Shown here piece after piece: positions 1 through 62,773 of a stretch of DNA of 64,000 bases. Under the pieces are notes generated by a model. It did not search any database, was not told the origin of the DNA, and worked only from the letters and a program-made list of their open reading frames with translations. Source of the stretch: Labia minor (Eukaryota > Arthropoda > Insecta > Dermaptera > Spongiphoridae); contig OY720348.1 of NCBI GenBank assembly GCA_963082975.1, positions 60,549,461 to 60,613,460 on the forward strand, given 5' to 3'. The translations under genes were made by a program, and so were the position numbers. Numbering within the stretch: the first letter of the stretch is position 1; each line of letters starts with the position of its first letter.

Positions 1-66
1 CATGCAATCATAACATATTTATGGCACATATCCCACTCCACCCACTCACTAAATGTCAAATACTCT

Positions 67-109
67 AAAAGGGGTTTTATTTAATAAAAATGTTAATAAA
101 ACACCTTTT
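67..109. repeat. Imperfect inverted repeat at unit position 67-109
   Basis: A 15-base arm at 67-81 (AAAAGGGGTTTTATT) is mirrored at 95-109 with one mismatch, leaving a 13-base AT-only loop. It recurs in every unit at the same offset. It could extrude as a cruciform or be a relic of a small inverted-repeat element. No target-site duplication was identified. Confidence 0.6.
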
Positions 110-413
110 CCTAAACTAGTAGTCTAGTAAAATATTTATTACATATTATTTAAAATTGAAATAAAAATTACTTTATTTAATTGAATAAAAATTTAAAAAA
201 ATAATTTTTATTTTTTTTTTAAATATTGAAATGTAATAACAAAAATTATATCAATTTTGCCCTTATTAATTCAAATATCAAAAAACGAACTATTTGTCCC
301 ATAAAAAATAAAGGTGTTGAATTCTCACATTTGGTGGGCTGTTAATCAAGTCGAGGGTAGAAAAACATTTTTCCAAGTTGAAGATGAACCAAATTATCGC
401 CAGGACAAATGAT

Positions 414-425
414 GTTACATGTAAC
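414..425. repeat. Perfect 12-bp palindrome GTTACATGTAAC
   Basis: A perfect dyad followed directly by three AAAAC steps. It is present at the same offset in every unit. It could be a protein-binding site, but nothing in the sequence shows a function. Confidence 0.6.
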
Positions 426-518
426 AAAACAAAACAAAACCATACATAAGATTGATTTTTTTGAATAAATCACTAAAATTATTTTATAATATACTACTAG
501 ATAAATATAGATACTGAC

Positions 519-606
519 CTCGAAGTTTTAAATGGGGAGCCAACTCGCAGCCAGCCGATGGCCGAACTCGATGTCGTACTTATATCATCCGATTCTTTTC
601 AGCTCC
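519..606 (-). other. GC-richer island bounded by splice-like sites (minus strand)
   Basis: On the minus strand an 88-base GC-richer stretch follows an acceptor-like TTGTTTTCAG and is followed by a donor-like GTCAGT. All three forward reading frames meet stops, so if it is an exon it would be terminal or non-coding. Unit 2 carries a local difference here (gatgaggtac instead of gatgtcgtac). The call is only that the island and its boundaries exist; exon status is inference. Confidence 0.2.
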
Positions 607-970
607 CTGAAAACAATTGCTCTCATGAATGGGATAATTTCTATTTAACTAAATAATAAATATGAAAATATAACAATTATTATTTTAAATTTACAATACA
701 ATCCGGATTATAATTAATATCTATAGGAATGTTATTTTTTTTATTTATCCTTTCCAATATATTAAAATGAAAAAAACAATTTATAAAGTATCTATGTCCG
801 TAATGATTAAAAGTTTTTAAAATAATAATAATATTAAAATAAATTTGAAATTTGAACCTGCTGGGTTATTTTAATTTTTATCTGACATCGTTTAATAACA
901 GACTATCTCGTGATTTTAGAAGAAAATTGAAAAATTTGAATTGCCATAAATATCCATGAATAGGATTACA

Positions 971-1785
971 AATACGAGGGATTTATTTAGTTATTATATA
1001 TTAATTTATACCATTTTGGATTGTAATTAAGATTCAATTTGGATGTTTACGATATTTAAAAAGTTTCCTTGGAATATCAGGCATCGTCATTGAAAAAATA
1101 TGATTTTTTTCAATTTTTTGGGGATAATTCTACTTTTTTGAAATTCGAGGGATTTATTAAGTTATTATATATTAATTTTTACCATTTTGGATTCTAATTA
1201 AGATTTAATTTGGATATTTACGATATTTTAAATATTTCTTTGGAAATCAGGAATTGTCATTGAAAAAATATGATTTTTTTCAATTTTTTGGTGGAAAATT
1301 CTATATATTCATTTCTCCATTTTGGATTCTAAGTAAGATTCAATTTGTATGTTTACGATATTTTAAAAATTTCCTTAGAAATCAGGCATCGTCATTGAAA
1401 AAATATGATTTTTTTCAATTTTTTGGGGATAATTCTACTTTTTTGAAATTCGAGGGATTTATTAAGTTATTATATATTAATTTTTACCATTTTGGATTCT
1501 AATTAAGATTTAATTTGGATATTTACGATATTTTAAATATTTCTTTGGAAATCAGGAATTGTCATTGAAAAAATATGATTTTTTTCAATTTTTTTAGGGA
1601 AATTTCTACTTTTGGTAAATACAAGGGATTTTTTAACTTTTTATATATTAATTTATACCATTTTGGATTCTAATTAAGATTCAATTTGTATGTTTACGAT
1701 ATTTTAAAACTTTCCTTAGAAAATATGGATTGCGGTAGATAAAATATGATTTTTTTTTTCAATTTTTTACATATACAATACTTAC
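971..1785. repeat. Internal sub-repeat block (five degenerate copies)
   Basis: Five related segments carry the phrase aaaatatgatttttttcaat, preceded in the first four by gtcattg. These anchors sit at about 1086, 1256, 1391 and 1561, with a diverged fifth near 1741. Spacing is about 170, 135, 170 and 171 bases. The 170+135 pair forms a 305-base higher-order period that is itself duplicated (1086-1390 against 1391-1695). An 82-codon open frame at 1254-1502 spans this block, but it is TTG-initiated and simply encodes the repeated AT-rich phrase, so it is not called as a gene. The equivalent block is in every complete unit, shortened by one 305-base period in units 8 and 11. Confidence 0.9.
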
Positions 1786-1824
1786 AATGTATTGATTATT
1801 CAACAGTATCATCGTCTTCAATCC
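1786..1824 (-). other. 39-base exon-like island (minus strand)
   Basis: On the minus strand a 39-base segment lies between an acceptor-like TTGTTTTACAG and a donor-like GTAAGTATTG. Joined to the island at 2028-2148 in a unit with a 9-base G run, the frame reads an acidic tail (I-E-D-D-D-T-V-E) and stops. In 7-G units it stops almost at once, and in the 11-G unit it stays open through the segment. The frame dependence suggests either non-coding sequence or a decayed exon. Confidence 0.2.
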
Positions 1825-2027
1825 CTGTAAAACAAAGACTAATATGAAATAATGTTTTCCTGGAATAATTCATTTATTGGAAATCTACTCATCTTTTTGA
1901 TGAAACCGTAAAAGTGAAACAACAACATTGATCGAGGTTACATGAAAAACAAGAAAAATAAAAGACATATTTATTAAGATTGAAAATAGAGTAGAATAAT
2001 ATTTAAATATCTTAAACAAATACTTAC

Positions 2028-2148
2028 GGGGGGGGGTTTCACCCCCTTGCAATAGCCCGATGTATGTTGACGATGATCTGGAAGTCATTATGTTGTCAAT
2101 CTCTCTCTCTCTCTCTCTTGTTTATGCAATGGTGCACATCAATTAGGA
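2028..2148 (-). other. Exon-like island containing the G run and the (CT)9 tract (minus strand)
   Basis: The minus strand shows an acceptor-like TTAATTTTTTAG before 2148 and a consensus donor GTAAGTATTTG after 2028. Within it an ATG at 2088-2086 opens a frame beginning MTSRSSSTYIG, with a TAA stop seven codons upstream of the AG repeat. Read as a continuation of the island at 2316-2421, the frame instead runs into a TGA just after the AG repeat, and a change of one dinucleotide there would alter that. No homologue recognised. It is a candidate exon of a decayed or non-coding transcript. Confidence 0.22.
2101..2118. repeat. (CT)9 microsatellite
   Basis: Eighteen bases of CT. I count the same length in the units inspected closely (1, 2 and 3), and it looks the same in the others. 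The neighbouring homopolymer G run, about 75 bases away, varies between units. Confidence 0.85.
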
Positions 2149-2315
2149 CTAAAAAATTAACAAACCATTTCACTTAGTAATTTAATATACGCTTGTAGTA
2201 TCTTTATAAATTCATCAATGTAAAAAACTCTAGAAATATCTATACAAGAAATTAAACATTTTATATATCTGGATTTGATATTTTGAAACGATATTGTATT
2301 CATCATTCTACTCAC

Positions 2316-2421
2316 TGGTTGTGCATGCGCTTATTAGCTTCTTATTAGCTTCTTCCATCATTTCTTAGTGACCAGAGAGTAGAGTCAAGACAGAATCATC
2401 CACGGGTACGAACATCATCAT
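2316..2421 (-). other. Exon-like island (minus strand) with two direct CTAATAAG motifs
   Basis: Minus strand: acceptor-like CACCATTAG before 2421 and donor-like GTGAGTAG after 2316. An ATG pair starts a short frame MMEEANKKLISACTT that reaches the donor in phase 1 and continues for 17 codons into the island at 2028-2148 before a stop. A TAA lies two codons before this ATG, so it could only be a start or follow an internal acceptor (CACTAAG). On the plus strand the same bases contain a tandem ttattagcttc. Function unknown. Confidence 0.2.
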
Positions 2422-2591
2422 CTAATGGTGATAGATCAAACATATGATAATAATTTAAAATTTAATTAAAACTTGTTTTAAACTTAAAAAATTAATAATT
2501 GAAGAAGATGAAGAAGAATAGTCAAAGAATGTTTTTAATAAGTCTTTTTATTTATATCTTATCATTTTATAGAAATTTCTATAATCTATAG

Positions 2592-2891
2592 CAGGGGTTC
2601 TTAAACTGTGGGTCGCGACCCCCCTGGGGGGTCGCGAGACTACTGAAAGCGGGTCGCAAAGATCTGATACTTTTGAATCATTATAAATAAAATTTTAAAA
2701 TTATTAAATTATATATATGTGAAATGAATGGGTATGTATTCTTTAATCCTTATTTTATTTACATTGTATAATAGTGCGATATTACATCTACATCTACGGT
2801 TAATATATATTTCATTATATGGAGGAGGGGGTCGTTTAAAATTTCCTAAGCTTGAAGGGGGTCGCTATATAAAAAAGTTTAAGAAGCCCTG
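2592..2891. mobile_element. hAT-type MITE in unit 1 (300 bp)
   Basis: Non-autonomous DNA transposon. Terminal inverted repeats are CAGGGGTTCTTAAACT at the left and its complement with one mismatch at the right. Behind them are GGGTCGCGACCC-type inner motifs and a strong local inverted repeat. It is flanked on both sides by the 8-bp duplication ATCTATAG (2584-2591 and 2892-2899). TIRs opening CAGGG and 8-bp duplications are established hallmarks of the hAT superfamily, and the octamer fits the nTnnnnAn preference. It encodes no transposase, so mobilisation would need a transposase supplied from elsewhere. The same insertion is in every unit at the same place, so it predates amplification of the array. 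Confidence 0.92.
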
Positions 2892-3112
2892 ATCTATAGC
2901 ATCATTAATATTTTAAATTTAATTTAATTCAATGAATATTTATATTGAATATTATTTAATAGAAATTGGAGGATATCTACTATCATAGAAATAGGATTGA
3001 TTATACATAAAATTTTAGACAGTAAGCGTTCTTGTAGGTGATATTTTAAAAGTTAAAATAATATTTCAATATTAATTATTTAAATAGTAGAAAAAATAAA
3101 TAAAACTCTTAC

Positions 3113-3211
3113 CCATTGATTGAGTATTGTTTTTTTATTTTCCTTTTTAGTAACCTTCATCATATTAGGTATATGAAATCTTATGCTCGCTCCATTCCAT
3201 TCAATGTAAAT
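3113..3211 (-). other. 33-codon open exon-like island (minus strand)
   Basis: The best coding candidate in the unit. On the minus strand 99 bases (exactly 33 codons) lie between an acceptor-like TTTCTTGTTTTTAG and a donor-like GTAAGAG. The frame is open throughout and its opening, IYIEWNGASIRFHIP, looks protein-like; an in-frame TAG falls precisely at the acceptor. Against it: the neighbouring island at 3340-3422 does not join in phase 0 without a stop, and no family is recognised. The opposite-strand frame at 3116-3379 overlaps it and is TTG-initiated and AT-rich. I regard this as a possible decayed exon. Confidence 0.28.
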
Positions 3212-3339
3212 CTAAAAACAAGAAATAATAGATTCATAATTAGTTTTGTGATTTCATTTAAAAATTCTGAAATTTTAATTATTTTCAAACATATTGAAAT
3301 TATTTCATTAAATATTATAGAAATAAAATTTCAATTCAC

Positions 3340-3422
3340 CGTTGAGAAGCCTCGCCGTCATTATGAAGAGATGCGTTGAATCTCTGCCCCCACAAACCAA
3401 CCACCCGTTTCTTCTTGATGCT
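3340..3422 (-). other. GC-richer exon-like island (minus strand)
   Basis: Minus strand: a long pyrimidine tract ending TTTTGAAG precedes 3422, and a weaker donor GTGAAT follows 3340. Two of the three frames are open. Neither joins the island at 3113-3211 in its open frame: both give a stop within ten codons. No function recognised. Confidence 0.2.
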
Positions 3423-3622
3423 CTTCAAAATATGAAAAGAAAAAGAAATGTTCATAAATTATTATATAGTTGACTAAATGTATTATATTATTAATGAGAC
3501 TCTAACGTTTTAAGAATGTATGTAAACTATACAATGAAAATACTAACCGTGGAGACTGCTTGGTTACGCAATGATGTCTTCCCTAATCAATCTATTCTAT
3601 CCCAGACCTAATTCTATGGCTC

Positions 3623-3634
3623 AGATGGCCATCT
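3623..3634. repeat. 12-bp palindrome AGATGGCCATCT
   Basis: Perfect dyad in the GC-richer part of the unit, about 50 bases before the GATCGCGATC dyad. It is present in the other complete units. The clustering of two dyads in a less AT-rich stretch is compatible with protein-binding or promoter sequence, but this is inference. Confidence 0.45.
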
Positions 3635-3685
3635 AACAATTTTTTCTATCTTCTATCTTCACGAGACGCTCTCCTTGCTAGAAAA

Positions 3686-3695
3686 GATCGCGATC
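3686..3695. repeat. 10-bp palindrome GATCGCGATC
   Basis: Perfect dyad with extended CG alternation (atcgcgatcgcgg). CpG-rich in an otherwise CpG-poor unit. Unit 8 has a C-to-T change just after the dyad (gatcgtgg). Confidence 0.45.
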
Positions 3696-3976
3696 GCGGA
3701 AACGATGAAAAAAAAAAAAAAAAAATGAAAAGCACTACCGAAACGCGGTTAGACACAGTATGGTCTAAAATGTATTTTATTGTTCGAGGGAATGCGACGC
3801 TTAGAAGAAGAAGAAGAAAAAAAAAATTGGGAAAAGAAAATAGATTAATTGGGGAGGTGTTTGTGAGTTTCTGTGGATCAGCTGAGAGTGGTTTTGAATT
3901 TTTGGATTATGTCTGAACACCACATTTGAGGCAACCTGTAAGAGAAAACATCCTACCTAACTGGGGATTCATAGGC

Positions 3977-3994
3977 CCCGCCATAATGGGCGGG
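3977..3994. repeat. Short GC hairpin CCCGCC-n6-GGCGGG
   Basis: Perfect 6-bp GC stem with a 6-base loop, unusual in this AT-rich DNA and repeated in every complete unit (unit 4 is hidden by the gap). It lies just beyond the stop of the protein-like remnant on the minus strand. A role as an RNA structure cannot be shown. Confidence 0.4.
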
Positions 3995-4126
3995 TCACCC
4001 ATGAAAGAAAGTTAACCCTAGCGATAAGGCAGTCAATACATCCTTCGGGATATTCCCATTAAGGAACATTGTTGTACTACCTTCCCAAATGTCTGATCGA
4101 GAACATAGAGCCACATCAAAATCACT
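3995..4126 (-). pseudogene. Possible Penelope-like reverse transcriptase remnant (43 codons)
   Basis: A minus-strand frame runs 43 codons from AGT (4126) to a TGA (3997-3995), with a TAG immediately before it. Residues about 24-40 read NIPKDVLTALSLGLTF. From memory of the family, Penelope-like element proteins of arthropods often contain a stretch of the form N-x-x-x-x-IP-x-x-V-x-x-x-LSLG-x-x-F upstream of the polymerase core, and this resembles it. There is no YADD or other RT core in the unit and no further homologous frame, so at most it is a short relic. A second open frame (starting with an ATG around 4209, MCIVHELFP) overlaps in another phase. Alternatives are chance or an unrelated gene fragment. 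The same segment is present in the other units, at the distal end of each. Confidence 0.25.
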
Positions 4127-4206
4127 CTAAGAGATACACATAACTGTACACAAACCAGGGTATTGTCATCAATAGACGACTTGGGAAACAATTCATGCAC
4201 AATACA

Positions 4207-7200
4207 CATGCAATCATAACATATTTATGGCACATATCCCACTCCACCCACTCACTAAATGTCAAATACTCTAAAAGGGGTTTTATTTAATAAAAATGTT
4301 AATAAAACACCTTTTCCTAAACTAGTAGTCTAGTAAAATATTTATTACATATTATTTAAAATTGAAATAAAAATTACTTTATTTAATTGAATAAAAATTT
4401 AAAAAAATAATTTTTATTTTTTTTTTAAATATTGAAATGTAATAACAAAAATTATATCAATTTTGCCCTTATTAATTCAAATATCAAAAAACGAACTATT
4501 TGTGCCATAAAAAATAAAGGTGTTGAATTCTCACATTTGGTGGGCTGTTAATCAAGTCGAGGGTAGAAAAACATTTTTCCAAGTTGAAGATGAACCAAAT
4601 TATCGCCAGGACAAATGATGTTACATGTAACAAAACAAAACAAAACCATACATAAGATTGATTTTTTTGAATAAATCACTAAAATTATTTTATAATATAC
4701 TACTAGATAAATATAGATACTGACCTCGAAGTTTTAAATGGGGAGCCAACTCGCAGCCAGCCGATGGCCGAACTCGATGAGGTACTTATATCATCCGATT
4801 CTTTTCAGCTCCCTGAAAACAATTGCTCTCATGAATGGGATAATTTCTATTTAACTAAATAATAAATATGAAAATATAACAATTATTATTTTAAATTTAC
4901 AATACAATCCGGATTATAATTAATATCTATAGGAATGTTATTTTTTTTATTTATCCTTTCCAATATATTAAAATGAAAAAAACAATTTATAAAGTATCTA
5001 TGTCCGTAATGATTAAAAGTTTTTAAAATAATAATAATATTAAAATAAATTTGAAATTTGAACCTGCTGGGTTATTTTAATTTTTATCTGACATCGTTTA
5101 ATAACAGACTATCTCGTGATTTTAGAAGAAAATTGAAAAATTTGAATTGCCATAAATATCCATGAATAGGATTACAAATACGAGGGATTTATTTAGTTAT
5201 TATATATTAATTTATACCATTTTGGATTGTAATTAAGATTCAATTTGGATGTTTACGATATTTAAAAAGTTTCCTTGGAATATCAGGCATCGTCATTGAA
5301 AAAATATGATTTTTTTCAATTTTTTGGGGATAATTCTACTTTTTTGAAATTCGAGGGATTTATTAAGTTATTATATATTAATTTTTACCATTTTGGATTC
5401 TAATTAAGATTTAATTTGGATATTTACGATATTTTAAATATTTCTTTGGAAATCAGGAATTGTCATTGAAAAAATATGATTTTTTTCAATTTTTTGGTGG
5501 AAAATTCTATATATTCATTTCTCCATTTTGGATTGTAATTAAGATTCAATTTGTATGTTTACGATATTTTAAAAATTTCCTTAGAAATCAGGCATCGTCA
5601 TTGAAAAAATATGATTTTTTTCAATTTTTTGGGGATAATTCTACTTTTTTGAAATTCGAGGGATTTATTAAGTTATTATATATTAATTTTTACCATTTTG
5701 GATTCTAATTAAGATTTAATTTGGATATTTACGATATTTTAAATATTTCTTTGGAAATCAGGAATTGTCATTGAAAAAATATGATTTTTTTCAATTTTTT
5801 TAGGGAAATTTCTACTTTTGGTAAATACAAGGGATTTTTTAACTTTTTATATATTAATTTATACCATTTTGGATTCTAATTAAGATTCAATTTGTATGTT
5901 TACGATATTTTAAAACTTTCCTTAGAAAATATGGATTGCGGTAGATAAAATATGATTTTTTTTTTCAATTTTTTACATATACAATACTTACAATGTATTG
6001 ATTATTCAACAGTATCATCGTCTTCAATCCCTGTAAAACAAAGACTAATATGAAATAATGTTTTCCTGGAATAATTCATTTATTGGAAATCTACTCATCT
6101 TTTTGATGAAACCGTAAAAGTGAAACAACAACATTGATCGAGGTTACATGAAAAACAAGAAAAATAAAAGACATATTTATTAAGATTGAAAATAGAGTAG
6201 AATAATATTTAAATATCTTAAACAAATACTTACGGGGGGGGGTTTCACCCCCTTGCAATAGCCCGATGTATGTTGACGATGATCTGGAAGTCATTATGTT
6301 GTCAATCTCTCTCTCTCTCTCTCTTGTTTATGCAATGGTGCACATCAATTAGGACTAAAAAATTAACAAACCATTTCACTTAGTAATTTAATATACGCGT
6401 GTAGTATCTTTATAAATTCATCAATGTAAAAAACTCTAGAAATATCTATACAAGAAATTAAACATTTTATATATCTGGATATTTGATATTTTGAAACGAT
6501 ATTGTATTCATCATTCTACTCACTGGTTGTGCATGCGCTTATTAGCTTCTTATTAGCTTCTTCCATCATTTCTTAGTGACCAGAGAGTAGAGTCAAGACA
6601 GAATCATCCACGGGTACGAACATCATCATCTAATGGTGATAGATCAAACATATGATAATAATTTAAAATTTAATTAAAACTTGTTTTAAACTTAAAAAAT
6701 TAATAATTGAAGAAGATGAAGAAGAATAGTCAAAGAATGTTTTTAATAAGTCTTTTTATTTATATCTTATCATTTTATAGAAATTTCTATAATCTATAGC
6801 AGGGGTTCTTAAACTGTGGGTCGCGACCCCCCTGGGGGGTCGCGAGACTACTGAAAGCGGGTCGCAAAGATCTGATACTTTTGAATCATTATAAATAAAA
6901 TTTTAAAATTATTAAATTATATATATGTGAAATGAATGGGTATGTATTCTTTAATCCTTATTTTATTTACATTGTATAATAGTGCGATATTACATCTACA
7001 TCTACGGTTAATATATATTTCATTATATGGAGGAGGGGGTCGTTTAAAATTTCCTAAGCTTGAAGGGGGTCGCTATATAAAAAAGTTTAAGAAGCCCTGA
7101 TCTATAGCATCATTAATATTTTAAATTTAATTTAATTCAATGAATATTTATATTGAATATTATTTAATAGAAATTGGAGGATATCTACTATCATAGAAAT

Positions 7201-8415
7201 AGGATTGATTATACATAAAATTTTAGACAGTAAGCGTTCTTGTAGGTGATATTTTAAAAGTTAAAATAATATTTCAATATTAATTATTTAAATAGTAGAA
7301 AAAATAAATAAAACTCTTACCCATTGATTGAGTATTGTTTTTTTATTTTCCTTTTTAGTAACCTTCATCATATTAGGTATATGAAATCTTATGCTCGCTC
7401 CATTCCATTCAATGTAAATCTAAAAACAAGAAATAATAGATTCATAATTAGTTTTGTGATTTCATTTAAAAATTCTGAAATTTTAATTATTTTCAAACAT
7501 ATTGAAATTATTTCATTAAATATTATAGAAATAAAATTTCAATTCACCGTTGAGAAGCCTCGCCGTCATTATGAAGAGATGCGTTGAATCTCTGCCCCCA
7601 CAAACCAACCACCCGTTTCTTCTTGATGCTCTTCAAAATATGAAAAGAAAAAGAAATGTTCATAAATTATTATATAGTTGACTAAATGTATTATATTATT
7701 AATGAGACTCTAACGTTTTAAGAATGTATGTAAACTATACAATGAAAATACTAACCGTGGAGACTGCTTGGTTACGCAATGATGTCTTCCCTAATCAATC
7801 TATTCTATCCCAGACCTAATTCTATGGCTCAGATGGCCATCTAACAATTTTTCCTATCTTCTATCTTCACGAGACGCTCTCCTTGCTAGAAAAGATCGCG
7901 ATCGCGGAAACGATGAAAAAAAAAAAAAAAAAAATGAAAAGCACTACCGAAACGCGGTTAGACACAGTATGGTCTAAAATGTATTTTATTGTTCGAGGGA
8001 ATGCGACGCTTAGAAGAAGAAGAAGAAAAAAAAAATTGGGAAAAGAAAATAGATTAATTGGGGAGGTGTTTGTGAGTTTCTGTGGATCAGCTGAGAGTGG
8101 TTTTGAATTTTTGGATTATGTCTGAACACCACATTTGAGGCAACCTGTAAGAGAAAACATCCTACCTAACTGGGGATTCATAGGCCCCGCCATAATGGGC
8201 GGGTCACCCATGAAAGAAAGTTAACCCTAGCGATAAGGCAGTCAATACATCCTTCGGGATATTCCCATTAAGGAACATTGTTGTACTACCTTCCCAAATG
8301 TCTGATCGAGAACATAGAGCCACATCAAAATCACTCTAAGAGATACACATAACTGTACACAAACCAGGGTATTGTCATCAATAGACGACTTGGGAAACAA
8401 TTCATGCACAATACA
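4207..8415. repeat. Macrosatellite unit 2 (4209 bp)
   Basis: Carries gatgaggtac where other units have gatgtcgtac, a 2-base insertion (ctggatatttgat) after the atatatct stretch, a G run of 9, and the ttttagacag variant shared only with unit 1. Its sub-repeat block has the gtaattaag form. Confidence 0.97.
6800..7099. mobile_element. hAT MITE, unit 2 copy
   Basis: Full-length 300-bp copy. ATCTATAG is intact on both sides (left at 6792-6799). Confidence 0.9.
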
Positions 8416-11004
8416 CATGCAATCATAACATATTTATGGCACATATCCCACTCCACCCACTCACTAAATGTCAAATACTCTAAAAGGGGTTTTATTTAAT
8501 AAAAATGTTAATAAAACACCTTTTCCTAAACTAGTAGTCTAGTAAAATATTTATTACATATTATTTAAAATTGAAATAAAAATTACTTTATTTAATTGAA
8601 TAAAAATTTAAAAAAATAATTTTTATTTTTTTTTTAAATATTGAAATGTAATAACAAAAATTATATCAATTTTGCCCTTATTAATTCAAATATCAAAAAA
8701 CGAACTATTTGTGCCATAAAAAATAAAGGTGTTGAATTCTCACATTTGGTGGGCTGTTAATCAAGTCGAGGGTAGAAAAACATTTTTCCAAGTTGAAGAT
8801 GAACCAAATTATCGCCAGGACAAATGATGTTACATGTAACAAAACAAAACAAAACCATACATAAGATTGATTTTTTTGAATAAATCACTAAAATTATTTT
8901 ATAATATACTACTAGATAAATATAGATACTGACCTCGAAGTTTTAAATGGGGAGCCAACTCGCAGCCAGCCGATGGCCGAACTCGATGTCGTACTTATAT
9001 CATCCGATTCTTTTCAGCTCCCTGAAAACAATTGCTCTCATGAATGGGATAATTTCTATTTAACTAAATAATAAATATGAAAATATAACAATTATTATTT
9101 TAAATTTACAATACAATCCGGATTATAATTAATATCTATAGGAATGTTATTTTTTTTATTTATCCTTTCCAATATATTAAAATGAAAAAAACAATTTATA
9201 AAGTATCTATGTCCGTAATGATTAAAAGTTTTTAAAATAATAATAATATTAAAATAAATTTGAAATTTGAACCTGCTGGGTTATTTTAATTTTTATCTGA
9301 CATCGTTTAATAACAGACTATCTCGTGATTTTAGAAGAAAATTGAAAAATTTGAATTGCCATAAATATCCATGAATAGGATTACAAATACGAGGGATTTA
9401 TTTAGTTATTATATATTAATTTATACCATTTTGGATTGTAATTAAGATTCAATTTGGATGTTTACGATATTTAAAAAGTTTCCTTGGAATATCAGGCATC
9501 GTCATTGAAAAAATATGATTTTTTTCAATTTTTTGGGGATAATTCTACTTTTTTGAAATTCGAGGGATTTATTAAGTTATTATATATTAATTTTTACCAT
9601 TTTGGATTCTAATTAAGATTTAATTTGGATATTTACGATATTTTAAATATTTCTTTGGAAATCAGGAATTGTCATTGAAAAAATATGATTTTTTTCAATT
9701 TTTTGGTGGAAAATTCTATATATTCATTTCTCCATTTTGGATTGTAATTAAGATTCAATTTGTATGTTTACGATATTTTAAAAATTTCCTTAGAAATCAG
9801 GCATCGTCATTGAAAAAATATGATTTTTTTCAATTTTTTGGGGATAATTCTACTTTTTTGAAATTCGAGGGATTTATTAAGTTATTATATATTAATTTTT
9901 ACCATTTTGGATTCTAATTAAGATTTAATTTGGATATTTACGATATTTTAAATATTTCTTTGGAAATCAGGAATTGTCATTGAAAAAATATGATTTTTTT
10001 CAATTTTTTTAGGGAAATTTCTACTTTTGGTAAATACAAGGGATTTTTTAACTTTTTATATATTAATTTATACCATTTTGGATTCTAATTAAGATTCAAT
10101 TTGTATGTTTACGATATTTTAAAACTTTCCTTAGAAAATATGGATTGCGGTAGATAAAATATGATTTTTTTTTTCAATTTTTTACATATACAATACTTAC
10201 AATGTATTGATTATTCAACAGTATCATCGTCTTCAATCCCTGTAAAACAAAGACTAATATGAAATAATGTTTTCCTGGAATAATTCATTTATTGGAAATC
10301 TACTCATCTTTTTGATGAAACCGTAAAAGTGAAACAACAACATTGATCGAGGTTACATGAAAAACAAGAAAAATAAAAGACATATTTATTAAGATTGAAA
10401 ATAGAGTAGAATAATATTTAAATATCTTAAACAAATACTTACGGGGGGGTTTCACCCCCTTGCAATAGCCCGATGTATGTTGACGATGATCTGGAAGTCA
10501 TTATGTTGTCAATCTCTCTCTCTCTCTCTCTTGTTTATGCAATGGTGCACATCAATTAGGACTAAAAAATTAACAAACCATTTCACTTAGTAATTTAATA
10601 TACGCGTGTAGTATCTTTATAAATTCATCAATGTAAAAAACTCTAGAAATATCTATACAAGAAATTAAACATTTTATATATCTGGATTTGATATTTTGAA
10701 ACGATATTGTATTCATCATTCTACTCACTGGTTGTGCATGCGCTTATTAGCTTCTTATTAGCTTCTTCCATCATTTCTTAGTGACCAGAGAGTAGAGTCA
10801 AGACAGAATCATCCACGGGTACGAACATCATCATCTAATGGTGATAGATCAAACATATGATAATAATTTAAAATTTAATTAAAACTTGTTTTAAACTTAA
10901 AAAATTAATAATTGAAGAAGATGAAGAAGAATAGTCAAAGAATGTTTTTAATAAGTCTTTTTATTTATATCTTATCATTTTATAGAAATTTCTATAATCT
11001 ATAG

Positions 11005-11304
11005 CAGGGGTTCTTAAACTGTGGGTCGCGACCCCCCTGGGGGGTCGCGAGACTACTGAAAGCGGGTCGCAAAGATCTGATACTTTTGAATCATTATAAA
11101 TAAAATTTTAAAATTATTAAATTATATATATGTGAAATGAATGGGTATGTATTCTTTAATCCTTATTTTATTTACATTGTATAATAGTGCGATATTACAT
11201 CTACATCTACGGTTAATATATATTTCATTATATGGAGGAGGGGGTCGTTTAAAATTTCCTAAGCTTGAAGGGGGTCGCTATATAAAAAAGTTTAAGAAGC
11301 CCTG
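11005..11304. mobile_element. hAT MITE, unit 3 copy
   Basis: Full-length copy. Its right-hand duplicated octamer (11305-11312) was reused as the target of the next element. Confidence 0.9.
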
Positions 11305-11312
11305 ATCTATAG

Positions 11313-11567
11313 CAGGGGTGGCCAACTTCTTTATATATAGGATCGACTATTTTTCTTGAATATGTTTCGAGATCACCAAAGAAAAAAGTACGAAGTGTTC
11401 AAAACCTTAGTATAGAAAACTGTTGAGCTTTTATTGAAATTGAAAAAATTTAAGGGCCTTGATCGACCAAAAAACGCTTATTGATCAATCACAAAGCGGT
11501 TGGCGATCGACCGAAAGACGCTTCGGGATCGACCGGTCGATCGCGATCGACGTGTTGGCCGTACCTG
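11313..11567. mobile_element. Second hAT-like MITE, unique to unit 3 (255 bp)
   Basis: Begins CAGGGGTGGCCAACTT and ends GTGTTGGCCGTACCTG, an imperfect terminal inverted repeat. It is flanked by ATCTATAG at 11305-11312 and 11568-11575, so the octamer now occurs three times in a row around two elements. Its 3' half is rich in gatcgacc and gatcgcgatc motifs, unlike the surrounding AT-rich DNA. It has no open frame for a transposase. The different interior and subterminal sequence show that it is a different family from the 300-bp MITE. Absent from all other complete units, so it inserted after the array had amplified. Confidence 0.88.
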
Positions 11568-15558: not shown

Positions 15559-15758
15559 NNNNNNNNNNNNNNNNNNNNNNNNNNNNNNNNNNNNNNNNNN
15601 NNNNNNNNNNNNNNNNNNNNNNNNNNNNNNNNNNNNNNNNNNNNNNNNNNNNNNNNNNNNNNNNNNNNNNNNNNNNNNNNNNNNNNNNNNNNNNNNNNNN
15701 NNNNNNNNNNNNNNNNNNNNNNNNNNNNNNNNNNNNNNNNNNNNNNNNNNNNNNNNNN
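15559..15758. other. Assembly gap (200 N)
   Basis: Exactly 200 unknown bases, a conventional placeholder length. Alignment of both sides to neighbouring units predicts about 1.39 kb of hidden sequence if only one unit is interrupted. One or more whole units could also be missing, because the flanks would look the same. Confidence 0.97.
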
Positions 15759-53131: not shown

Positions 53132-54832
53132 CATGCAATCATAACATATTTATGGCACATATCCCACTCCACCCACTCACTAAATGTCAAATACTCTAAA
53201 AGGGGTTTTATTTAATAAAAATGTTAATAAAACACCTTTTCCTAAACTAGTAGTCTAGTAAAATATTTATTACATATTATTTAAAATTGAAATAAAAATT
53301 ACTTTATTTAATTGAATAAAAATTTAAAAAAATAATTTTTATTTTTTTTTTAAATATTGAAATGTAATAACAAAAATTATATCAATTTTGCCCTTATTAA
53401 TTCAAATATCAAAAAACGAACTATTTGTGCCATAAAAAATAAAGGTGTTGAATTCTCACATTTGGTGGGCTGTTAATCAAGTCGAGGGTAGAAAAACATT
53501 TTTCCAAGTTGAAGATGAACCAAATTATCGCCAGGACAAATGATGTTACATGTAACAAAACAAAACAAAACCATACATAAGATTGATTTTTTTGAATAAA
53601 TCACTAAAATTATTTTATAATATACTACTAGATAAATATAGATACTGACCTCGAAGTTTTAAATGGGGAGCCAACTCGCAGCTAGCCGATGGCCGAACTC
53701 GATGTCGTACTTATATCATCCGATTCTTTTCAGCTCCCTGAAAACAATTGCTCTCATGAATGGGATAATTTCTATTTAACTAAATAATAAATATGAAAAT
53801 ATAACAATTATTATTTTAAATTTACAATACAATCCGGATTATAATTAATATCTATAGGAATGTTATTTTTTTTATTTATCCTTTCAAATATATTAAAATG
53901 AAAAAAACAATTTATAAAGTATCTATGTCCGTAATGATTAAAAGTTTTTAAAATAATAATAATATTAAAATAAATTTGAAATTTGAACCTGCTGGGTTAT
54001 TTTAATTTTTATCTGACATCGTTTAATAACAGACTATCTTGTGATTTTAGAAGAAAATTGAAAAATTTGAATTGCCATAAATATCCATGAATAGGATTAC
54101 AAATACGAGGGATTTATTTAGTTATTATATATTAATTTATACCATTTTGGATTGTAATTAAGATTCAATTTGGATGTTTACGATATTTAAAAAGTTTCCT
54201 TGGAATATCAGGCATCGTCATTGAAAAAATATGATTTTTTTCAATTTTTTGGGGATAATTCTACTTTTTTGAAATTCGAGGGATTTATTAAGTTATTATA
54301 TATTAATTTTTCCCATTTTGGATTCTAATTAAGATTTAATTTGGATATTTACGATATTTTAAATATTTCTTTGGAAATCAGGAATTGTCATTGAAAAAAT
54401 ATGATTTTTTTCAATTTTTTGGTGGAAAATTCTATATATTCATTTCTCCATTTTGGATTGTAATTAAGATTCAATTTGTATGTTTACGATATTTTAAAAA
54501 TTTCCTTAGAAATCAGGCATCGTCATTGAAAAAATATGATTTTTTTCAATTTTTTGGGGATAATTCTACTTTTTTGAAATTCGAGGGATTTATTAAGTTA
54601 TTATATATTAATTTTTACCATTTTGGATTCTAATTAAGATTTAATTTGGATATTTACGATATTTTAAATATTTCTTTGGAAATCAGGAATTGTCATTGAA
54701 AAAATATGATTTTTTTCAATTTTTTTAGGGAAATTTCTACTTTTGGTAAATACAAGGGATTTTTTAACTTTTTATATATTAATTTATACCATTTTGGATT
54801 CTAATTAAGATTCAATTTGTATGTTTACAATA

Positions 54833-54876
54833 TTTTAAAACTTTCCTTAGAAAATTTTAAAACTTTCCTTAGAAAA
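54833..54876. repeat. 22-bp tandem duplication unique to unit 14
   Basis: The phrase ttttaaaactttccttag plus four A occurs twice in immediate succession (54833-54854 and 54855-54876). All other complete units have it once. Confidence 0.92.
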
Positions 54877-55742
54877 TATGGATTGCGGTAGATAAAATAT
54901 GATTTTTTTTTTCAATTTTTTACATATACAATACTTACAATGTATTGATTATTCAACAGTATCATCGTCTTCAATCCCTGTAAAACAAAGACTAATATGA
55001 AATAATGTTTTCCTGGAATAATTCATTTATTGGAAATCTACTCATCTTTTTGATGAAACCGTAAAAGTGAAACAACAACATTGATCGAGGTTACATGAAA
55101 AACAAGAAAAATAAAAGACATATTTATTAAGATTGAAAATAGAGTAGAATAATATTTAAATATCTTAAACAAATACTTACGGGGGGGTTTCACCCCCTTG
55201 CAATAGCCCGATGTATGTTGACGATGATCTGGAAGTCATTATGTTGTCAATCTCTCTCTCTCTCTCTCTTGTTTATGCAATGGTGCACATCAATTAGGAC
55301 TAAAAAATTAACAAACCATTTCACTTAGTAATTTAATATACGCGTGTAGTATCTTTATAAATTCATCAATGTAAAAAACTCTAGAAATATCTATACAAGA
55401 AATTAAACATTTTATATATCTGGATTTGATATTTTGAAACGATATTGTATTCATCATTCTACTCACTGGTTGTGCATGCGCTTATTAGCTTCTTATTAGC
55501 TTCTTCCATCATTTCTTAGTGACCAGAGAGTAGAGTCAAGACAGAATCATCCACGGGTACGAACATCATCATCTAATGGTGATAGATCAAACATATGATA
55601 ATAATTTAAAATTTAATTAAAACTTGTTTTAAACTTAAAAAATTAATAATTGAAGAAGATGAAGAAGAATAGTCAAAGAATGTTTTTAATAAGTCTTTTT
55701 ATTTATATCTTATCATTTTATAGAAATTTCTATAATCTATAG

Positions 55743-56042
55743 CAGGGGTTCTTAAACTGTGGGTCGCGACCCCCCTGGGGGGTCGCGAGACTACTGAAAG
55801 CGGGTCGCAAAGATCTGATACTTTTGAATCATTATAAATAAAATTTTAAAATTATTAAATTATATATATGTGAAATGAATGGGTATGTATTCTTTAATCC
55901 TTATTTTATTTACATTGTATAATAGTGCGATATTACATCTACATCTACGGTTAATATATATTTCATTATATGGAGGAGGGGGTCGTTTAAAATTTCCTAA
56001 GCTTGAAGGGGGTCGCTATATAAAAAAGTTTAAGAAGCCCTG
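55743..56042. mobile_element. hAT MITE, unit 14 copy
   Basis: Full-length copy, both octamers intact. Confidence 0.9.
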
Positions 56043-57359
56043 ATCTATAGCATCATTAATATTTTAAATTTAATTTAATTCAATGAATATTTATATTGAA
56101 TATTATTTAATAGAAATTGGAGGATATCTACTATCATAGAAATAGGATTGATTATACATAAAATTTTGGACAGTAAGCGTTCTTGTAGGTGATATTTTAA
56201 AAGTTAAAATAATATTTCAATATTAATTATTTAAATAGTAGAAAAAATAAATAAAACTCTTACCCATTGATTGAGTATTGTTTTTTTATTTTCCTTTTTA
56301 GTAACCTTCATCATATTAGGTATATGAAATCTTATGCTCGCTCCATTCCATTCAATGTAAATCTAAAAACAAGAAATAATAGATTCATAATTAGTTTTGT
56401 GATTTCATTTAAAAATTCTGAAATTTTAATTATTTTCAAACATATTGAAATTATTTCATTAAATATTATAGAAATAAAATTTCAATTCACCGTTGAGAAG
56501 CCTCGCCGTCATTATGAAGAGATGCGTTGAATCTCTGCCCCCACAAACCAACCACCCGTTTCTTCTTGATGCTCTTCAAAATATGAAAAGAAAAAGAAAT
56601 GTTCATAAATTATTATATAGTTGACTAAATGTATTATATTATTAATGAGACTCTAACGTTTTAAGAATGTATGTAAACTATACAATGAAAATACTAACCG
56701 TGGAGACTGCTTGGTTACGCAATGATGTCTTCCCTAATCAATCTATTCTATCCCAGACCTAATTCTATGGCTCAGATGGCCATCTAACAATTTTTTCTAT
56801 CTTCTATCTTCACGAGACGCTCTCCTTGCTAGAAAAGATCGCGATCGCGGAAACGATGAAAAAAAAAAAAAAAAAAAATGAAAAGCACTACCGAAACGCG
56901 ATTAGACACAGTATGGTCTAAAATGTATTTTATTGTTCGAGGGAATGCGACGCTTAGAAGAAGAAGAAGAAAAAAAAAATTGGGAAAAGAAAATAGATTA
57001 ATTGGGGAGGTGTTTGTGAGTTTCTGTGGATCAGCTGAGAGTGGTTTTGAATTTTTGGATTATGTCTGAACACCACATTTGAGGCAACCTGTAAGAGAAA
57101 ACATCCTACCTAACCGGGGATTCATAGGCCCCGCCATAATGGGCGGGTCACCCATGAAAGAAAGTTAACCCTAGCGATAAGGCAGTCAATACATCCTTCG
57201 GGATATTCCCATTAAGGAACATTGTTGTACTACCTTCCCAAATGTCTGATCGAGAACATAGAGCCACATCAAAATCACTCTAAGAGATACACATAACTGT
57301 ACACAAACCAGGGTATTGTCATCAATAGACGACTTGGGAAACAATTCATGCACAATACA

Positions 57360-60300
57360 CATGCAATCATAACATATTTATGGCACATATCCCACTCCAC
57401 CCACTCACTAAATGTCAAATACTCTAAAAGGGGTTTTATTTAATAAAAATGTTAATAAAACACCTTTTCCTAAACTAGTAGTCTAGTAAAATATTTATTA
57501 CATATTATTTAAAATTGAAATAAAAATTACTTTATTTAATTGAATAAAAATTTAAAAAAATAATTTTTATTTTTTTTTTAAATATTGAAATGTAATAACA
57601 AAAATTATATCAATTTTGCCCTTATTAATTCAAATATCAAAAAACGAACTATTTGTGCCATAAAAAATAAAGGTGTTGAATTCTCACATTTGGTGGGCTG
57701 TTAATCAAGTCGAGGGTAGAAAAACATTTTTCCAAGTTGAAGATGAACCAAATTATCGCCAGGACAAATGATGTTACATGTAACAAAACAAAACAAAACC
57801 ATACATAAGATTGATTTTTTTGAATAAATCACTAAAATTATTTTATAATATACTACTAGATAAATATAGATACTGACCTCGAAGTTTTAAATGGGGAGCC
57901 AACTCGCAGCTAGCCGATGGCCGAACTCGATGTCGTACTTATATCATCCGATTCTTTTCAGCTCCCTGAAAACAATTGCTCTCATGAATGGGATAATTTC
58001 TATTTAACTAAATAATAAATATGAAAATATAACAATTATTATTTTAAATTTACAATACAATCCGGATTATAATTAATATCTATAGGAATGTTATTTTTTT
58101 TATTTATCCTTTCAAATATATTAAAATGAAAAAAACAATTTATAAAGTATCTATGTCCGTAATGATTAAAAGTTTTTAAAATAATAATAATATTAAAATA
58201 AATTTGAAATTTGAACCTGCTGGGTTATTTTAATTTTTATCTGACATCGTTTAATAACAGACTATCTTGTGATTTTAGAAGAAAATTGAAAAATTTGAAT
58301 TGCCATAAATATCCATGAATAGGATTACAAATACGAGGGATTTATTTAGTTATTATATATTAATTTATACCATTTTGGATTGTAATTAAGATTCAATTTG
58401 GATGTTTACGATATTTAAAAAGTTTCCTTGGAATATCAGGCATCGTCATTGAAAAAATATGATTTTTTTCAATTTTTTGGGGATAATTCTACTTTTTTGA
58501 AATTCGAGGGATTTATTAAGTTATTATATATTAATTTTTCCCATTTTGGATTCTAATTAAGATTTAATTTGGATATTTACGATATTTTAAATATTTCTTT
58601 GGAAATCAGGAATTGTCATTGAAAAAATATGATTTTTTTCAATTTTTTGGTGGAAAATTCTATATATTCATTTCTCCATTTTGGATTGTAATTAAGATTC
58701 AATTTGTATGTTTACGATATTTTAAAAATTTCCTTAGAAATCAGGCATCGTCATTGAAAAAATATGATTTTTTTCAATTTTTTGGGGATAATTCTACTTT
58801 TTTGAAATTCGAGGGATTTATTAAGTTATTATATATTAATTTTTACCATTTTGGATTCTAATTAAGATTTAATTTGGATATTTACGATATTTTAAATATT
58901 TCTTTGGAAATCAGGAATTGTCATTGAAAAAATATGATTTTTTTCAATTTTTTTAGGGAAATTTCTACTTTTGGTAAATACAAGGGATTTTTTAACTTTT
59001 TATATATTAATTTATACCATTTTGGATTTTAATTAAGATTCAATTTGTATGTTTACGATATTTTAAAACTTTCCTTAGAAAATATGCATTGCGGTAGATA
59101 AAATATGATTTTTTTTTTCAATTTTTTACATATAAAATACTTACAATGTATTGATTATTCAACAGTATCATCGTCTTCAATCCCTGTAAAACAAAGACTA
59201 ATATGAAATAATGTTTTCCTGGAATAATTCATTTATTGGAAATCTACTCATCTTTTTGATGAAACCGTAAAAGTGAAACAACAACATTGATCGAGGTTAC
59301 ATGAAAAACAAGAAAAATAAAACACATATTTATTAAGATTGAAAATAGAGTAGAATAATATTTAAATATCTTAAACAAATACTTACGGGGGGGGGTTTCA
59401 CCCCCTTGCAATAGCCCGATGTATGTTGACGATGATCTGGAAGTCATTATGTTGTCAATCTCTCTCTCTCTCTCTCTTGTTTATGCAATGGTGCACATCA
59501 ATTAGGACTAAAAAATTAACAAACCATTTCACTTAGTAATTTAATATACGCGTGTAGTATCTTTATAAATTCATCAATGTAAAAAACTCTAGAAATATCT
59601 ATACAAGAAATTAAACATTTTATATATCTGGATTTGATATTTTGAAACGATATTGTATTCATCATTCTACTCACTGGTTGTGCATGCGCTTATTAGCTTC
59701 TTATTAGCTTCTTCCATCATTTCTTAGTGACCAGAGAGTAGAGTCAAGACAGAATCATCCACGGGTACGAACATCATCATCTAATGGTGATAGATCAAAC
59801 ATATGATAATAATTTAAAATTTAATTAAAACTTGTTTTAAACTTAAAAAATTAATAATTGAAGAAGATGAAGAAGAATAGTCAAAGAATGTTTTTAATAA
59901 GTCTTTTTATTTATATCTTATCATTTTATAGAAATTTCTATAATCTATAGCAGGGGTTCTTAAACTGTGGGTCGCGACCCCCCTGGGGGGTCGCGAGACT
60001 ACTGAAAGCGGGTCGCAAAGATCTGATACTTTTGAATCATTATAAATAAAATTTTAAAATTATTAAATTATATATATGTGAAATGAATGGGTATGTATTC
60101 TTTAATCCTTATTTTATTTACATTGTATAATAGTGCGATATTACATCTACATCTACGGTTAATATATATTTCATTATATGGAGGAGGGGGTCGTTTAAAA
60201 TTTCCTAAGCTTGAAGGGGGTCGCTATATAAAAAAGTTTAAGAAGCCCTGATCTATAGCATCATTAATATTTTAAATTTAATTTAATTCAATGAATATTT

Positions 60301-61567
60301 ATATTGAATATTATTTAATAGAAATTGGAGGATATCTACTATCATAGAAATAGGATTGATTATACATAAAATTTTGGACAGTAAGCGTTCTTGTAGGTGA
60401 TATTTTAAAAGTTAAAATAATATTTCAATATTAATTATTTAAATAGTAGAAAAAATAAATAAAACTCTTACCCATTGATTGAGTATTGTTTTTTTATTTT
60501 CCTTTTTAGTAACCTTCATCATATTAGGTATATGAAATCTTATGCTCGCTCCATTCCATTCAATGTAAATCTAAAAACAAGAAATAATAGATTCATAATT
60601 AGTTTTGTGATTTCATTTAAAAATTCTGAAATTTTAATTATTTTCAAACATATTGAAATTATTTCATTAAATATTATAGAAATAAAATTTCAATTCACCG
60701 TTGAGAAGCCTCGCCGTCATTATGAAGAGATGCGTTGAATCTCTGCCCCCACAAACCAACCACCCGTTTCTTCTTGATGCTCTTCAAAATATGAAAAGAA
60801 AAAGAAATGTTCATAAATTATTATATAGTTGACTAAATGTATTATATTATTAATGAGACTCTAACGTTTTAAGAATGTATGTAAACTATACAATGAAAAT
60901 ACTAACCGTGGAGACTGCTTGGTTACGCAATGATGTCTTCCCTAATCAATCTATTCTATCCCAGACCTAATTCTATGGCTCAGATGGCCATCTAACAATT
61001 TTTTCTATCTTCTATCTTCACGAGACGCTCTCCTTGCTAGAAAAGATCGCGATCGCGGAAACGATGAAAAAAAAAAAAAAAAAAAATGAAATGCACTACC
61101 GAAACGCGGTTAGACACAGTATGGTCTAAAATGTATTTTATTGTTCGAGGGAATGCGACGCTTAGAAGAAGAAGAAGAAAAAAAAAATTGGGAAAAGAAA
61201 ATAGATTAATTGGGGAGGTGTTTGTGAGTTTCTGTGGATCAGCTGAGAGTGGTTTTGAATTTTTGGATTATGTCTGAACACCACATTTGAGGCAACCTGT
61301 AAGAGAAAACATCCTACCTAACCGGGGATTCATAGGCCCCGCCATAATGGGCGGGTCACCCATGAAAGAAAGTTAACCCTAGCGATAAGGCAGTCAATAC
61401 ATCCTTCGGGATATTCCCATTAAGGAACATTGTTGTACTACCTTCCCAAATGTCTGATCGAGAACATAGAGCCACATCAAAATCACTCTAAGAGATACAC
61501 ATAACTGTACACAAACCAGGGTATTGTCATCAATAGACGACTTGGGAAACAATTCATGCACAATACA
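57360..61567. repeat. Macrosatellite unit 15 (4208 bp)
   Basis: Last complete unit. The proximal variants match unit 14. The middle variants (aaaacacatatt, acatataaaatac) match unit 7, eight units away. It reverts to acgcggttag, unlike units 11-14. Private changes include gaaatgcac after the poly-A run and aatatgcattgcgg near 59085. G run of 9. Confidence 0.97.
59951..60250. mobile_element. hAT MITE, unit 15 copy
   Basis: Full-length copy, both octamers intact. Confidence 0.9.
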
Positions 61568-62773
61568 CATGCAATCATAACATATTTATGGCACATATCC
61601 CACTCCACCCACTCACTAAATGTCAAATACTCTAAAAGGGGTTTTATTTAATAAAAATGTTAATAAAACACCTTTTCCTAAACTAGTAGTCTAGTAAAAT
61701 ATTTATTACATATTATTTAAAATTGAAATAAAAATTACTTTATTTAATTGAATAAAAATTTAAAAAAATAATTTTTATTTTTTTTTTAAATATTGAAATG
61801 TAATAACAAAAATTATATCAATTTTGCCCTTATTAATTCAAATATCAAAAAACGAACTATTTGTGCCATAAAAAATAAAGGTGTTGAATTCTCACATTTG
61901 GTGGGCTGTTAATCAAGTCGAGGGTAGAAAAACATTTTTCCAAGTTGAAGATGAACCAAATTATCGCCAGGACAAATGATGTTACATGTAACAAAACAAA
62001 ACAAAACCATACATAAGATTGATTTTTTTGAATAAATCACTAAAATTATTTTATAATATACTACTAGATAAATATAGATACTGACCTCGAAGTTTTAAAT
62101 GGGGAGCCAACTCGCAGCCAGCCGATGGCCGAACTCGATGTCGTACTTATATCATCCGATTCTTTTCAGCTCCCTGAAAACAATTGCTCTCATGAATGGG
62201 ATAATTTCTATTTAACTAAATAATAAATATGAAAATATAACAATTATTATTTTAAATTTACAATACAATCCGGATTATAATTAATATCTATAGGAATGTT
62301 ATTTTTTTTATTTATCCTTTCCAATATATTAAAATGAAAAAAACAATTTATAAAGTATCTATGTCCGTAATGATTAAAAGTTTTTAAAATAATAATAATA
62401 TTAAAATAAATTTGAAATTTGAACCTGCTGGGTTATTTTAATTTTTATCTGACATCGTTTAATAACAGACTATCTCGTGATTTTAGAAGAAAATTGAAAA
62501 ATTTGAATTGCCATAAATATCCATGAATAGGATTACAAATACGAGGGATTTATTTAGTTATTATATATTAATTTATACCATTTTGGATTGTAATTAAGAT
62601 TCAATTTGGATGTTTACGATATTTAAAAAGTTTCCTTGGAATATCAGGCATCGTCATTGAAAAAATATGATTTTTTTCAATTTTTTGGGGATAATTCTAC
62701 TTTTTTGAAATTCGAGGGATTTATTAAGTTATTATATATTAATTTTTTCCATTTTGGATTCTAATTAAGATTC
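61568..62773. repeat. Truncated unit 16 at the array edge (about 1.2 kb)
   Basis: Follows the unit consensus from the arbitrary start into the first sub-repeat and stops matching within ctaattaagatt. Its variants (cagccagccg, ctttccaatat, aattttttccatt) match units 9 and 10 and differ from the adjacent units 14 and 15. The break falls inside the sub-repeat block, the same region that loses a period in units 8 and 11. Confidence 0.93.

What the first reader, a model, noticed from the sequence alone, without database searches (positions are those of the whole stretch)
1..62773. Long homogeneous macrosatellite with 4.2-kb units and a captured edge
Fifteen complete same-orientation units plus a partial one fill 62.8 kb. 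Units this large with no rDNA, histone or snRNA gene are unusual for a satellite. Conserved GC-richer islands inside an AT-rich unit raise the question whether something in it is transcribed or bound.
Basis: partly seen in the sequence, partly recalled or inferred. Interest (0 to 1): 0.7.

Follow-up and report, generated by a model that had tools for sequence, protein, structure and literature searches.

The report
Earwig X-chromosome repeated noncoding-RNA gene array
A stretch of near-identical 4.2-kb repeats on an earwig X chromosome appears to hold, in nearly every repeat, a copy of an undescribed folded and spliced noncoding RNA that also occurs in other arrays and single copies across that genome; whether it is transcribed has not been tested.

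Summary
The array is real: 15 complete same-strand units (3.9-4.47 kb; one cut by a 200-N gap; 99.7-100% identical) and two partial ones. The contig length equals that of the Labia minor (lesser earwig) X chromosome; the array continues left of the window to about 83.5 kb, about 20 units. The GC-rich islands belong to a repeat family: one core pattern has 284 matches in the genome, on all seven chromosomes, in tandem arrays (3.1-7 kb spacing) and as single copies. Across three subfamilies 20-25% apart, a ~610-nt core on the minus strand is conserved, keeps a long-range hairpin with compensatory changes and folds better than shuffled controls. Six splice-donor-like sites on that strand are conserved in one sequence of each subfamily. 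No Pfam match above cut-off, no Rfam match and no long spliced reading frame were found. Best reading: a macrosatellite whose unit is a copy of an undescribed structured, spliced noncoding RNA gene; RNU2 and DXZ4 are human analogues of the arrangement. Against: no RNA data; one donor-like site is lost in all 15 units; two of five covariation measures do not beat shuffles; four solo copies carry a transposon-type end, so a selfish noncoding element remains possible.

The parts
1..62773 (-). Macrosatellite array: 15 complete units (one with an N gap) and two partial ones; drawn on the strand of the inferred transcript
   Evidence: continues left to C10:60528705
57894..62101 (-). Representative complete unit (u15, 4208 bp), used for the unit-level parts below
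60938..61548 (-). Structured RNA-like core; closing helix 61548-61544 / 60942-60938
   Evidence: alignments A1, A3; consensus fold and nulls
61221..61515 (-). Long-range hairpin: arms 61515-61438 and 61295-61221, inner hairpins 61432-61395 and 61366-61329
   Evidence: single-sequence z -2.9 to -8.4 in the 13 of 20 sequences folded before the script stopped; z -4.4 on minus, -2.7 on plus for 61216-61520
60894..61360 (.). Most conserved stretch between X arrays: 10 variable of 459 columns, against 185 of 1341 and 47 of 736 beside it
62086..62173 (-). Exon-like island g; conserved donor GTCAGT/GTTAGT at 62085
60907..61296 (-). Exon-like end of the core: acceptor-like TTACAG before 61296, conserved donor GTTAGT/GTAGGT at 60906
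60699..60781 (-). Exon-like island d
   Evidence: seems fused with c by deletion in the C-type unit
60472..60570 (-). Exon-like island c
   Evidence: not found as such in the C type
59675..59780 (-). Exon-like island b; donor GTGAGT here (GTTAGT in the 8.2-Mb array), conserved as GT.AGT in three subfamilies
59387..59507 (-). Exon-like island a; donor GTAAGT conserved in three subfamilies
59145..59183 (-). Exon-like island z (39 nt here, 70 and 66 in the other subfamilies); acceptor and donor conserved
58329..59115 (.). Minisatellite block with 135/171/305-bp periods
59951..60250 (.). hAT-like MITE, 8-bp target duplication ATCTATAG; empty site in the arrays at 8.2 and 66.2 Mb (2 of 3 checked)
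15559..15758 (.). 200-N scaffold gap inside unit 4

Best explanation
Each unit is one copy of a multicopy noncoding RNA gene read from the minus strand. The primary transcript is spliced and contains a ~610-nt structured core, whose heart is a ~295-nt imperfect long-range hairpin with two inner hairpins. The array multiplies the gene and is kept uniform by unequal exchange or conversion. Shown here: tandem homogeneity; conservation of the core across three subfamilies; strand-biased folding with compensatory changes; strand-biased conservation of splice-donor-like sites; lack of a long reading frame and of known protein or RNA families in the units examined. Inferred: that it is transcribed, spliced and acts as RNA. 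Most likely mode: a trans-acting structured nuclear RNA whose dose is raised by the array. Less likely, the long hairpin is a precursor of small RNAs.
For: Core 10/459 variable columns against 185/1341 and 47/736 between X arrays. Three-way identity, one sequence per subfamily, is 0.70 in the core (617 of 666 columns ungapped) against 0.56 (489/1163) and 0.59 (1181/2061) beside it. RNAalifold on the minus strand gives -108.3 kcal/mol against a null of -71.8 +/- 6.5, 0 of 60 reaching it, with 14 double-change pairs against a null maximum of 11; the plus strand is weaker, z -3.8. With subfamily C added, 94.6% of cells pair against 37-42% when slid, covariation score 0.105 against 0.023-0.038. 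Of 33 pairs changed in C, 21 stay paired (64%; random 36%, maximum 58% of 200). The ~300-nt domain folds with z -2.9 to -8.4 in all 13 sequences folded, of 20 intended. Donor-like GT.[AG]GT conserved in A, B and C: 6 on the minus strand, 1 on the other, null mean 0.47, maximum 3 of 200. In the window unit 4 of 8 exon-like pieces (g, i-e, b, a) have stops in all three frames, and the eight joined (989 nt) hold no frame over 76 codons. Lengths in A/B/C differ out of frame in z (39/70/66) and a (119/95/108). No stop-to-stop frame of 80 codons in a C unit. 284 genome matches, reversed control 0.
Against: No RNA evidence of any kind. In a single unit, strong donors were 0 on both strands at my threshold. 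One conserved donor (island y) is lost (GT to AT) in 15 of 15 window units. Islands a, b and d vary as much as their surroundings between X arrays. Length differences are multiples of three in b (105/105/81) and y (46/55/52, counted from an arbitrary start), and pieces h, c, d and z have at least one open frame, so short coding pieces are not excluded. The window unit does have stop-to-stop frames of 97 and 91 codons on the + strand. Two of five covariation measures do not beat shuffles (pairs with a change on both sides 11 vs 9.1, 84 of 500; further pair types 43 vs 48.6). Of 33 changed pairs in subfamily C, 12 are broken; its 7 double changes lie within the random range (mean 3.1, maximum 10), and B and C share many changes, so C is not fully independent. 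Four of four solo B copies checked share a transposon-type right end, and one has both ends and a target duplication.
Confidence: 0.58

Rival explanations
1. A selfish noncoding element. The core is the RNA or DNA signal that an autonomous partner (reverse transcriptase or transposase) recognises; arrays form by recombination and the host gets nothing.
For: Dispersed B copies on all six autosomes. One B copy (L030) lies between CAGTGGCGCAACC-type inverted ends with a 7-bp duplication TAGTATG, and three others share the right end. No Pfam match in the loci read.
Against: The inverted ends are absent from the window, from 6 of 6 other A- or C-type loci and from 4 of 4 tandem B loci checked. No long terminal repeats bracket L030, L031 or L033 (L034 has internal duplications and is unclear). 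Conserved splice-donor-like sites plus a strand-biased fold are not typical of noncoding DNA transposons (recalled, established knowledge).
Confidence: 0.25
2. Small-RNA precursor. The long hairpin (spliced: ~153 nt with a short loop) feeds Dicer, or the array feeds piRNAs, in a sex-chromosome conflict like hpRNA/Dox or Su(Ste).
For: The hairpin forms both unspliced and with the intron-like piece removed (z -3.3 to -7.0 in the 13 of 20 sequences folded). X enrichment of subfamily A: 49 of 53 exact core matches (A-type copies on chromosome 4 are missed by that pattern). X-linked hpRNA clusters and spliced hpRNA transcripts are described in Drosophila simulans (passages of PMC10317233).
Against: The hpRNA arms described there are near-perfect and match target genes; these arms are heavily bulged and no target was sought. 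The piece between the arms is itself strongly conserved, which a discarded intron would not need. The family as a whole is not X-limited.
Confidence: 0.12
3. Inert satellite. The core looks conserved only because of gene conversion between arrays.
For: Strong homogenisation within arrays; a lost donor site in the window array.
Against: Conversion explains uniformity but not compensatory changes between subfamilies, the bias to one strand or the conserved donor-like sites.
Confidence: 0.05

Closest known systems
RNU2 macrosatellite (human 17q)
   Same: Kilobase-scale tandem units (6.1 kb), each with a structured noncoding RNA gene (passages of PMC3599962).
   Different: The RNA there is U2 snRNA; here no Rfam family matches in what was searched, exon-like parts are present, and copies lie on all chromosomes.
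DXZ4 macrosatellite (human X)
   Same: X-linked kilobase-scale array thought to produce noncoding RNAs (passages of PMC3599962).
   Different: No sequence comparison made; DXZ4 is treated there as one X array, this is a genome-wide family with several X arrays.
Drosophila hpRNA clusters and Su(Ste)
   Same: Multicopy, sex-linked, noncoding; hpRNA transcripts spliced with hairpins (passages of PMC10317233; Su(Ste) from search listing and recall only).
   Different: Bulged, conserved hairpin; no target gene known; no small-RNA data.

Membership tests
Macrosatellite | Tandem head-to-tail units longer than 500 bp (usage in PMC12692304, passage) | tested here: met
   15 complete units, 14 of them 3.9-4.47 kb and one with a gap
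Known structured RNA family (Rfam 15) | Covariance-model match | tested here: not met
   0 matches at E<=1 in window 55-64 kb, at E<=0.5 in L030, L031 and L034, and at E<=1 in L035, L037, L038, L042 and L047
Long noncoding RNA gene | No long conserved reading frame | tested here: met
   4 of 8 exon-like pieces stopped in all frames, joined chain at most 76 codons; no 80-codon frame in L047; longest frame on the gene strand of the core 76, 82 and 71 codons in three subfamilies. Length changes are out of frame in z and a but multiples of three in b and y
Long noncoding RNA gene | Conserved splice sites | tested here: met
   6 donor-like sites conserved in one sequence of each of three subfamilies, null maximum 3 of 200; the y site, one of the six, is lost in the window's own array
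Long noncoding RNA gene | Transcription | not testable with these tools
   no reads held
hpRNA / small-RNA precursor | Dicer-dependent small RNAs and a complementary target | not testable with these tools
   no small-RNA data; no target search made
LTR retrotransposon derivative (LARD/TRIM; names recalled) | Long terminal direct repeats | tested here: not met
   none in L030; in L033 only a 118-bp pair at 73%; in L031 a 62-bp pair at 77% and a 200-bp pair outside the element; L034 has internal duplications and is unclear
TIR DNA transposon | Terminal inverted repeats and target-site duplication | tested here: inconclusive
   1 solo B copy with both, 3 with the right end only; none in the window, in 6 other A/C loci or in 4 tandem B loci

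The most novel reading that the evidence does not exclude
An undescribed, very high-copy structured and spliced noncoding RNA gene family of earwigs, with one subfamily amplified on the X in several arrays, that acts in a sex-linked process (X dosage compensation or X-Y conflict).
Probability: 0.15. Interest if true: 0.9.

Novelty: new variant of a known kind. Interest (0 to 1): 0.62.

Why it matters
Arrays with kilobase units and no known gene are easily written off as satellite DNA. Here three subfamilies within one genome provide enough divergence to expose a conserved RNA-like fold and conserved splice-like sites without any expression data. If transcribed, it would be an RNA gene family with hundreds of copies in an insect, and the concentration of one subfamily on the X gives a direct test of sex-linked RNA function. 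In the two listings I saw no paper was about such arrays in earwigs.

Tried and rejected
Protein-coding gene on the minus strand, my first idea from the exon-like islands: 4 of 8 pieces have stops in all frames, the joined pieces hold at most 76 codons, and no Pfam match passed its cut-off. Short coding pieces are not excluded (h, c, d and z have an open frame).

Single-unit splice scoring was uninformative: 0 strong donors on both strands, expected 0.5; acceptors 7 on minus against 2.8 expected (shuffle maximum 8) and 1 on plus against 2.2.

Fold of a 487-nt piece of the core in one sequence is modest and nearly equal on both strands (z -2.6 and -2.5); the strand bias appears in the alignment and in the ~300-nt domain. 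A control stretch of the same unit gave z +0.3.

Telomerase RNA: considered because the telomere is TTCGG; no repeated CCGAA template seen by eye in the core, and hundreds of copies argue against it. LTR derivative: no bracketing terminal repeats in L030, L031 or L033. Family outside this genome: the 28-mer of the core has 0 exact matches in viral and prokaryote contigs, which is expected and says nothing about insects. Literature: Dermaptera + satellite DNA gave 12 papers (10 listed), earwig + long non-coding RNA 4; none in the listings is about such arrays. Splitting the 284 matches by subfamily genome-wide was not possible (the search did not complete); one search lists only the first 100 places.
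Full report
OBSERVATION. The window holds 15 complete head-to-tail units with the same orientation and a partial unit at each end. Pairwise identity is 99.67-100%, with 27 SNP columns in all. One unit is interrupted by a 200-N gap at 15559-15758 and lacks ~1.4 kb. The whole array spans C10:60528705-60612233, about 83.5 kb. A 27-base core pattern occurs 19 times in it, and the gapped unit lacks it. Copy number is a best estimate, because mean HiFi read length is about 10 kb by my division of the published totals.

WHERE IT IS. C10 is 76,888,567 bases long and ends in a TTCGG telomere. [quoted passage not shown] the lengths of C1, C2, C4, C5, C6 and C9 match its autosomes 1-6. The genome note PMC11937785 (part 1 of 3 read) says the X was identified by half coverage in a male and that the expected Y is absent from the assembly.

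A FAMILY, NOT ONE SATELLITE. A 1-kb piece had 434 first-look candidates; the 40 that were scored all lie on the X, in arrays at 8.0, 8.2, 23.9, 60.5-60.6 and 66.2 Mb and in copies near 76.5 Mb. Units of four of these arrays are 3.4-3.66 kb; one unit or piece from each of the seven places compared is 92-98% identical to the others, with two near pairs (8.0/8.2 and the two at 76.5 Mb) at 99.7-100%. They lack the 300-bp hAT-like MITE of the window, and two of three checked show its empty site. Genome-wide, the exact 27-base core pattern has 53 matches, 49 on the X, 3 on chromosome 3 and 1 on chromosome 6; forms with 2-3 changes lie on all six autosomes and in two more X regions, with 95 matches in all and 0 for the reversed control. 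A second core pattern has 284 matches (reversed control 0), many in arrays with 6-7 kb spacing on chromosomes 1, 3, 5 and X and one with 3.1 kb spacing on chromosome 4; the tool listed only the first 100 places. I call the forms A (window type), B (mostly dispersed) and C (6-7 kb arrays).

THE CONSERVED CORE. Between X arrays, window 60894-61360 has 10 variable columns of 459, against 185 of 1341 and 47 of 736 on its sides. Between A and B, and later A, B and C, the same ~610 nt aligns end to end with many invariant blocks (14 sequences; 20 sequences). With one sequence per subfamily, three-way identity is 0.70 with few gaps, against 0.56 and 0.59 with many gaps outside.

RNA FOLD. On the minus strand the consensus fold of 14 sequences is -108.3 kcal/mol with 151 pairs, 14 of them with changes on both sides. 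In 60 shuffles of columns of like conservation the mean was -71.8, the best -90.8, and the most double changes 11. The plus strand gave -84.5 against a null of -60.7, z -3.8, so the minus strand is favoured but not exclusive, as expected for hairpins. The structure from A and B, carried to 20 sequences including C, pairs 94.6% of cells against 37-42% when slid; cells with a double change 46 against 2-13 slid and 15 in shuffles; two of five measures do not beat the shuffles. Of 33 pairs that differ in C from the window, 21 stay paired and 12 do not; 7 are double changes, within the random range. The dominant element is a long-range hairpin, arms 61515-61438 and 61295-61221. Thirteen of 20 sequences were folded singly before a script error; all 13 gave z between -2.9 and -8.4 for the unspliced ~300-nt domain and between -3.3 and -7.0 with the intron-like piece removed. 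A control stretch of the unit gave z +0.3.

SPLICE-LIKE SITES. In a three-row alignment (A from the 8.2-Mb array, B from L028, C composed of two neighbouring units) six GT.[AG]GT donor-like sites are conserved on the minus strand and one on the other; local column shuffles give a mean of 0.47 and at most 3 in 200. The looser motif was chosen after looking at the sites; the strict GT[AG]AGT gives 3 on the minus strand and 1 on the other against a null maximum of 2 in 300. Results against: a single unit shows no strong donors, and the y donor is GT to AT in all 15 window units.

CODING AND KNOWN RNA. In the window unit, exon-like pieces g, i-e, b and a have stops in all frames, while h, c, d and z have an open frame; all eight joined give at most 76 codons. 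Lengths in A/B/C change out of frame in z (39/70/66) and a (119/95/108) but by multiples of three in b (105/105/81) and y (46/55/52). No stop-to-stop frame of 80 codons exists in a 6.4-kb C unit; the window unit has two on the + strand, 97 and 91 codons. No Pfam match above its cut-off in six frames of an A unit, a C unit and B locus L027, and in three frames of L030 and L034. No Rfam match in window 55-64 kb or in eight loci.

MOBILITY. B copies L030, L031, L033 and L034 share a right end like CCTGGTTGCGCCACTG (with changes in L033); L030 also has the left end and a 7-bp duplication. The motif is absent from the window, from 6 of 6 other A- or C-type loci and from 4 of 4 tandem B loci checked. 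Part of the family thus travels or travelled inside a DNA transposon; the arrays do not show it.

INTERPRETATION. The anatomy fits a macrosatellite with an RNA gene in each unit, like RNU2 (6.1-kb units with U2) or the X-linked DXZ4 (passages of PMC3599962), but with an RNA that Rfam does not name. Function is inferred, not shown. I rank a functional multicopy structured RNA first, a selfish noncoding element second, a small-RNA precursor third, an inert satellite last.

Noticed in passing
11301-11563: Unit 3 alone carries a 263-bp insert starting beside the ATCTATAG duplication of the shared MITE and with CAGGGG...CCTG-type ends: probably a second hAT-like MITE at the same site, usable as a marker of a single unit.
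   Followed up: partly
63420-64000: The right flank holds a ~560-bp dispersed repeat found again in L010 (three more times), L009, L027 and L033 (83-90% identity).
   Followed up: partly
L029 and C10:61686335-61795118: A further X array of this family with ~3.55-kb spacing has its two halves in opposite orientation, a large inverted arrangement.
   Followed up: no
C1:126200510, C4:86424057, C6:70673708, C9:59874283, C1:223016, C9:287563: Single or few copies lie within ~20-290 kb of assembled chromosome ends (contig lengths).
   Followed up: no
L034:2252-2907 and 3654-4306: A 656-bp direct duplication at 98.6% identity inside a dispersed copy on chromosome 6.
   Followed up: no
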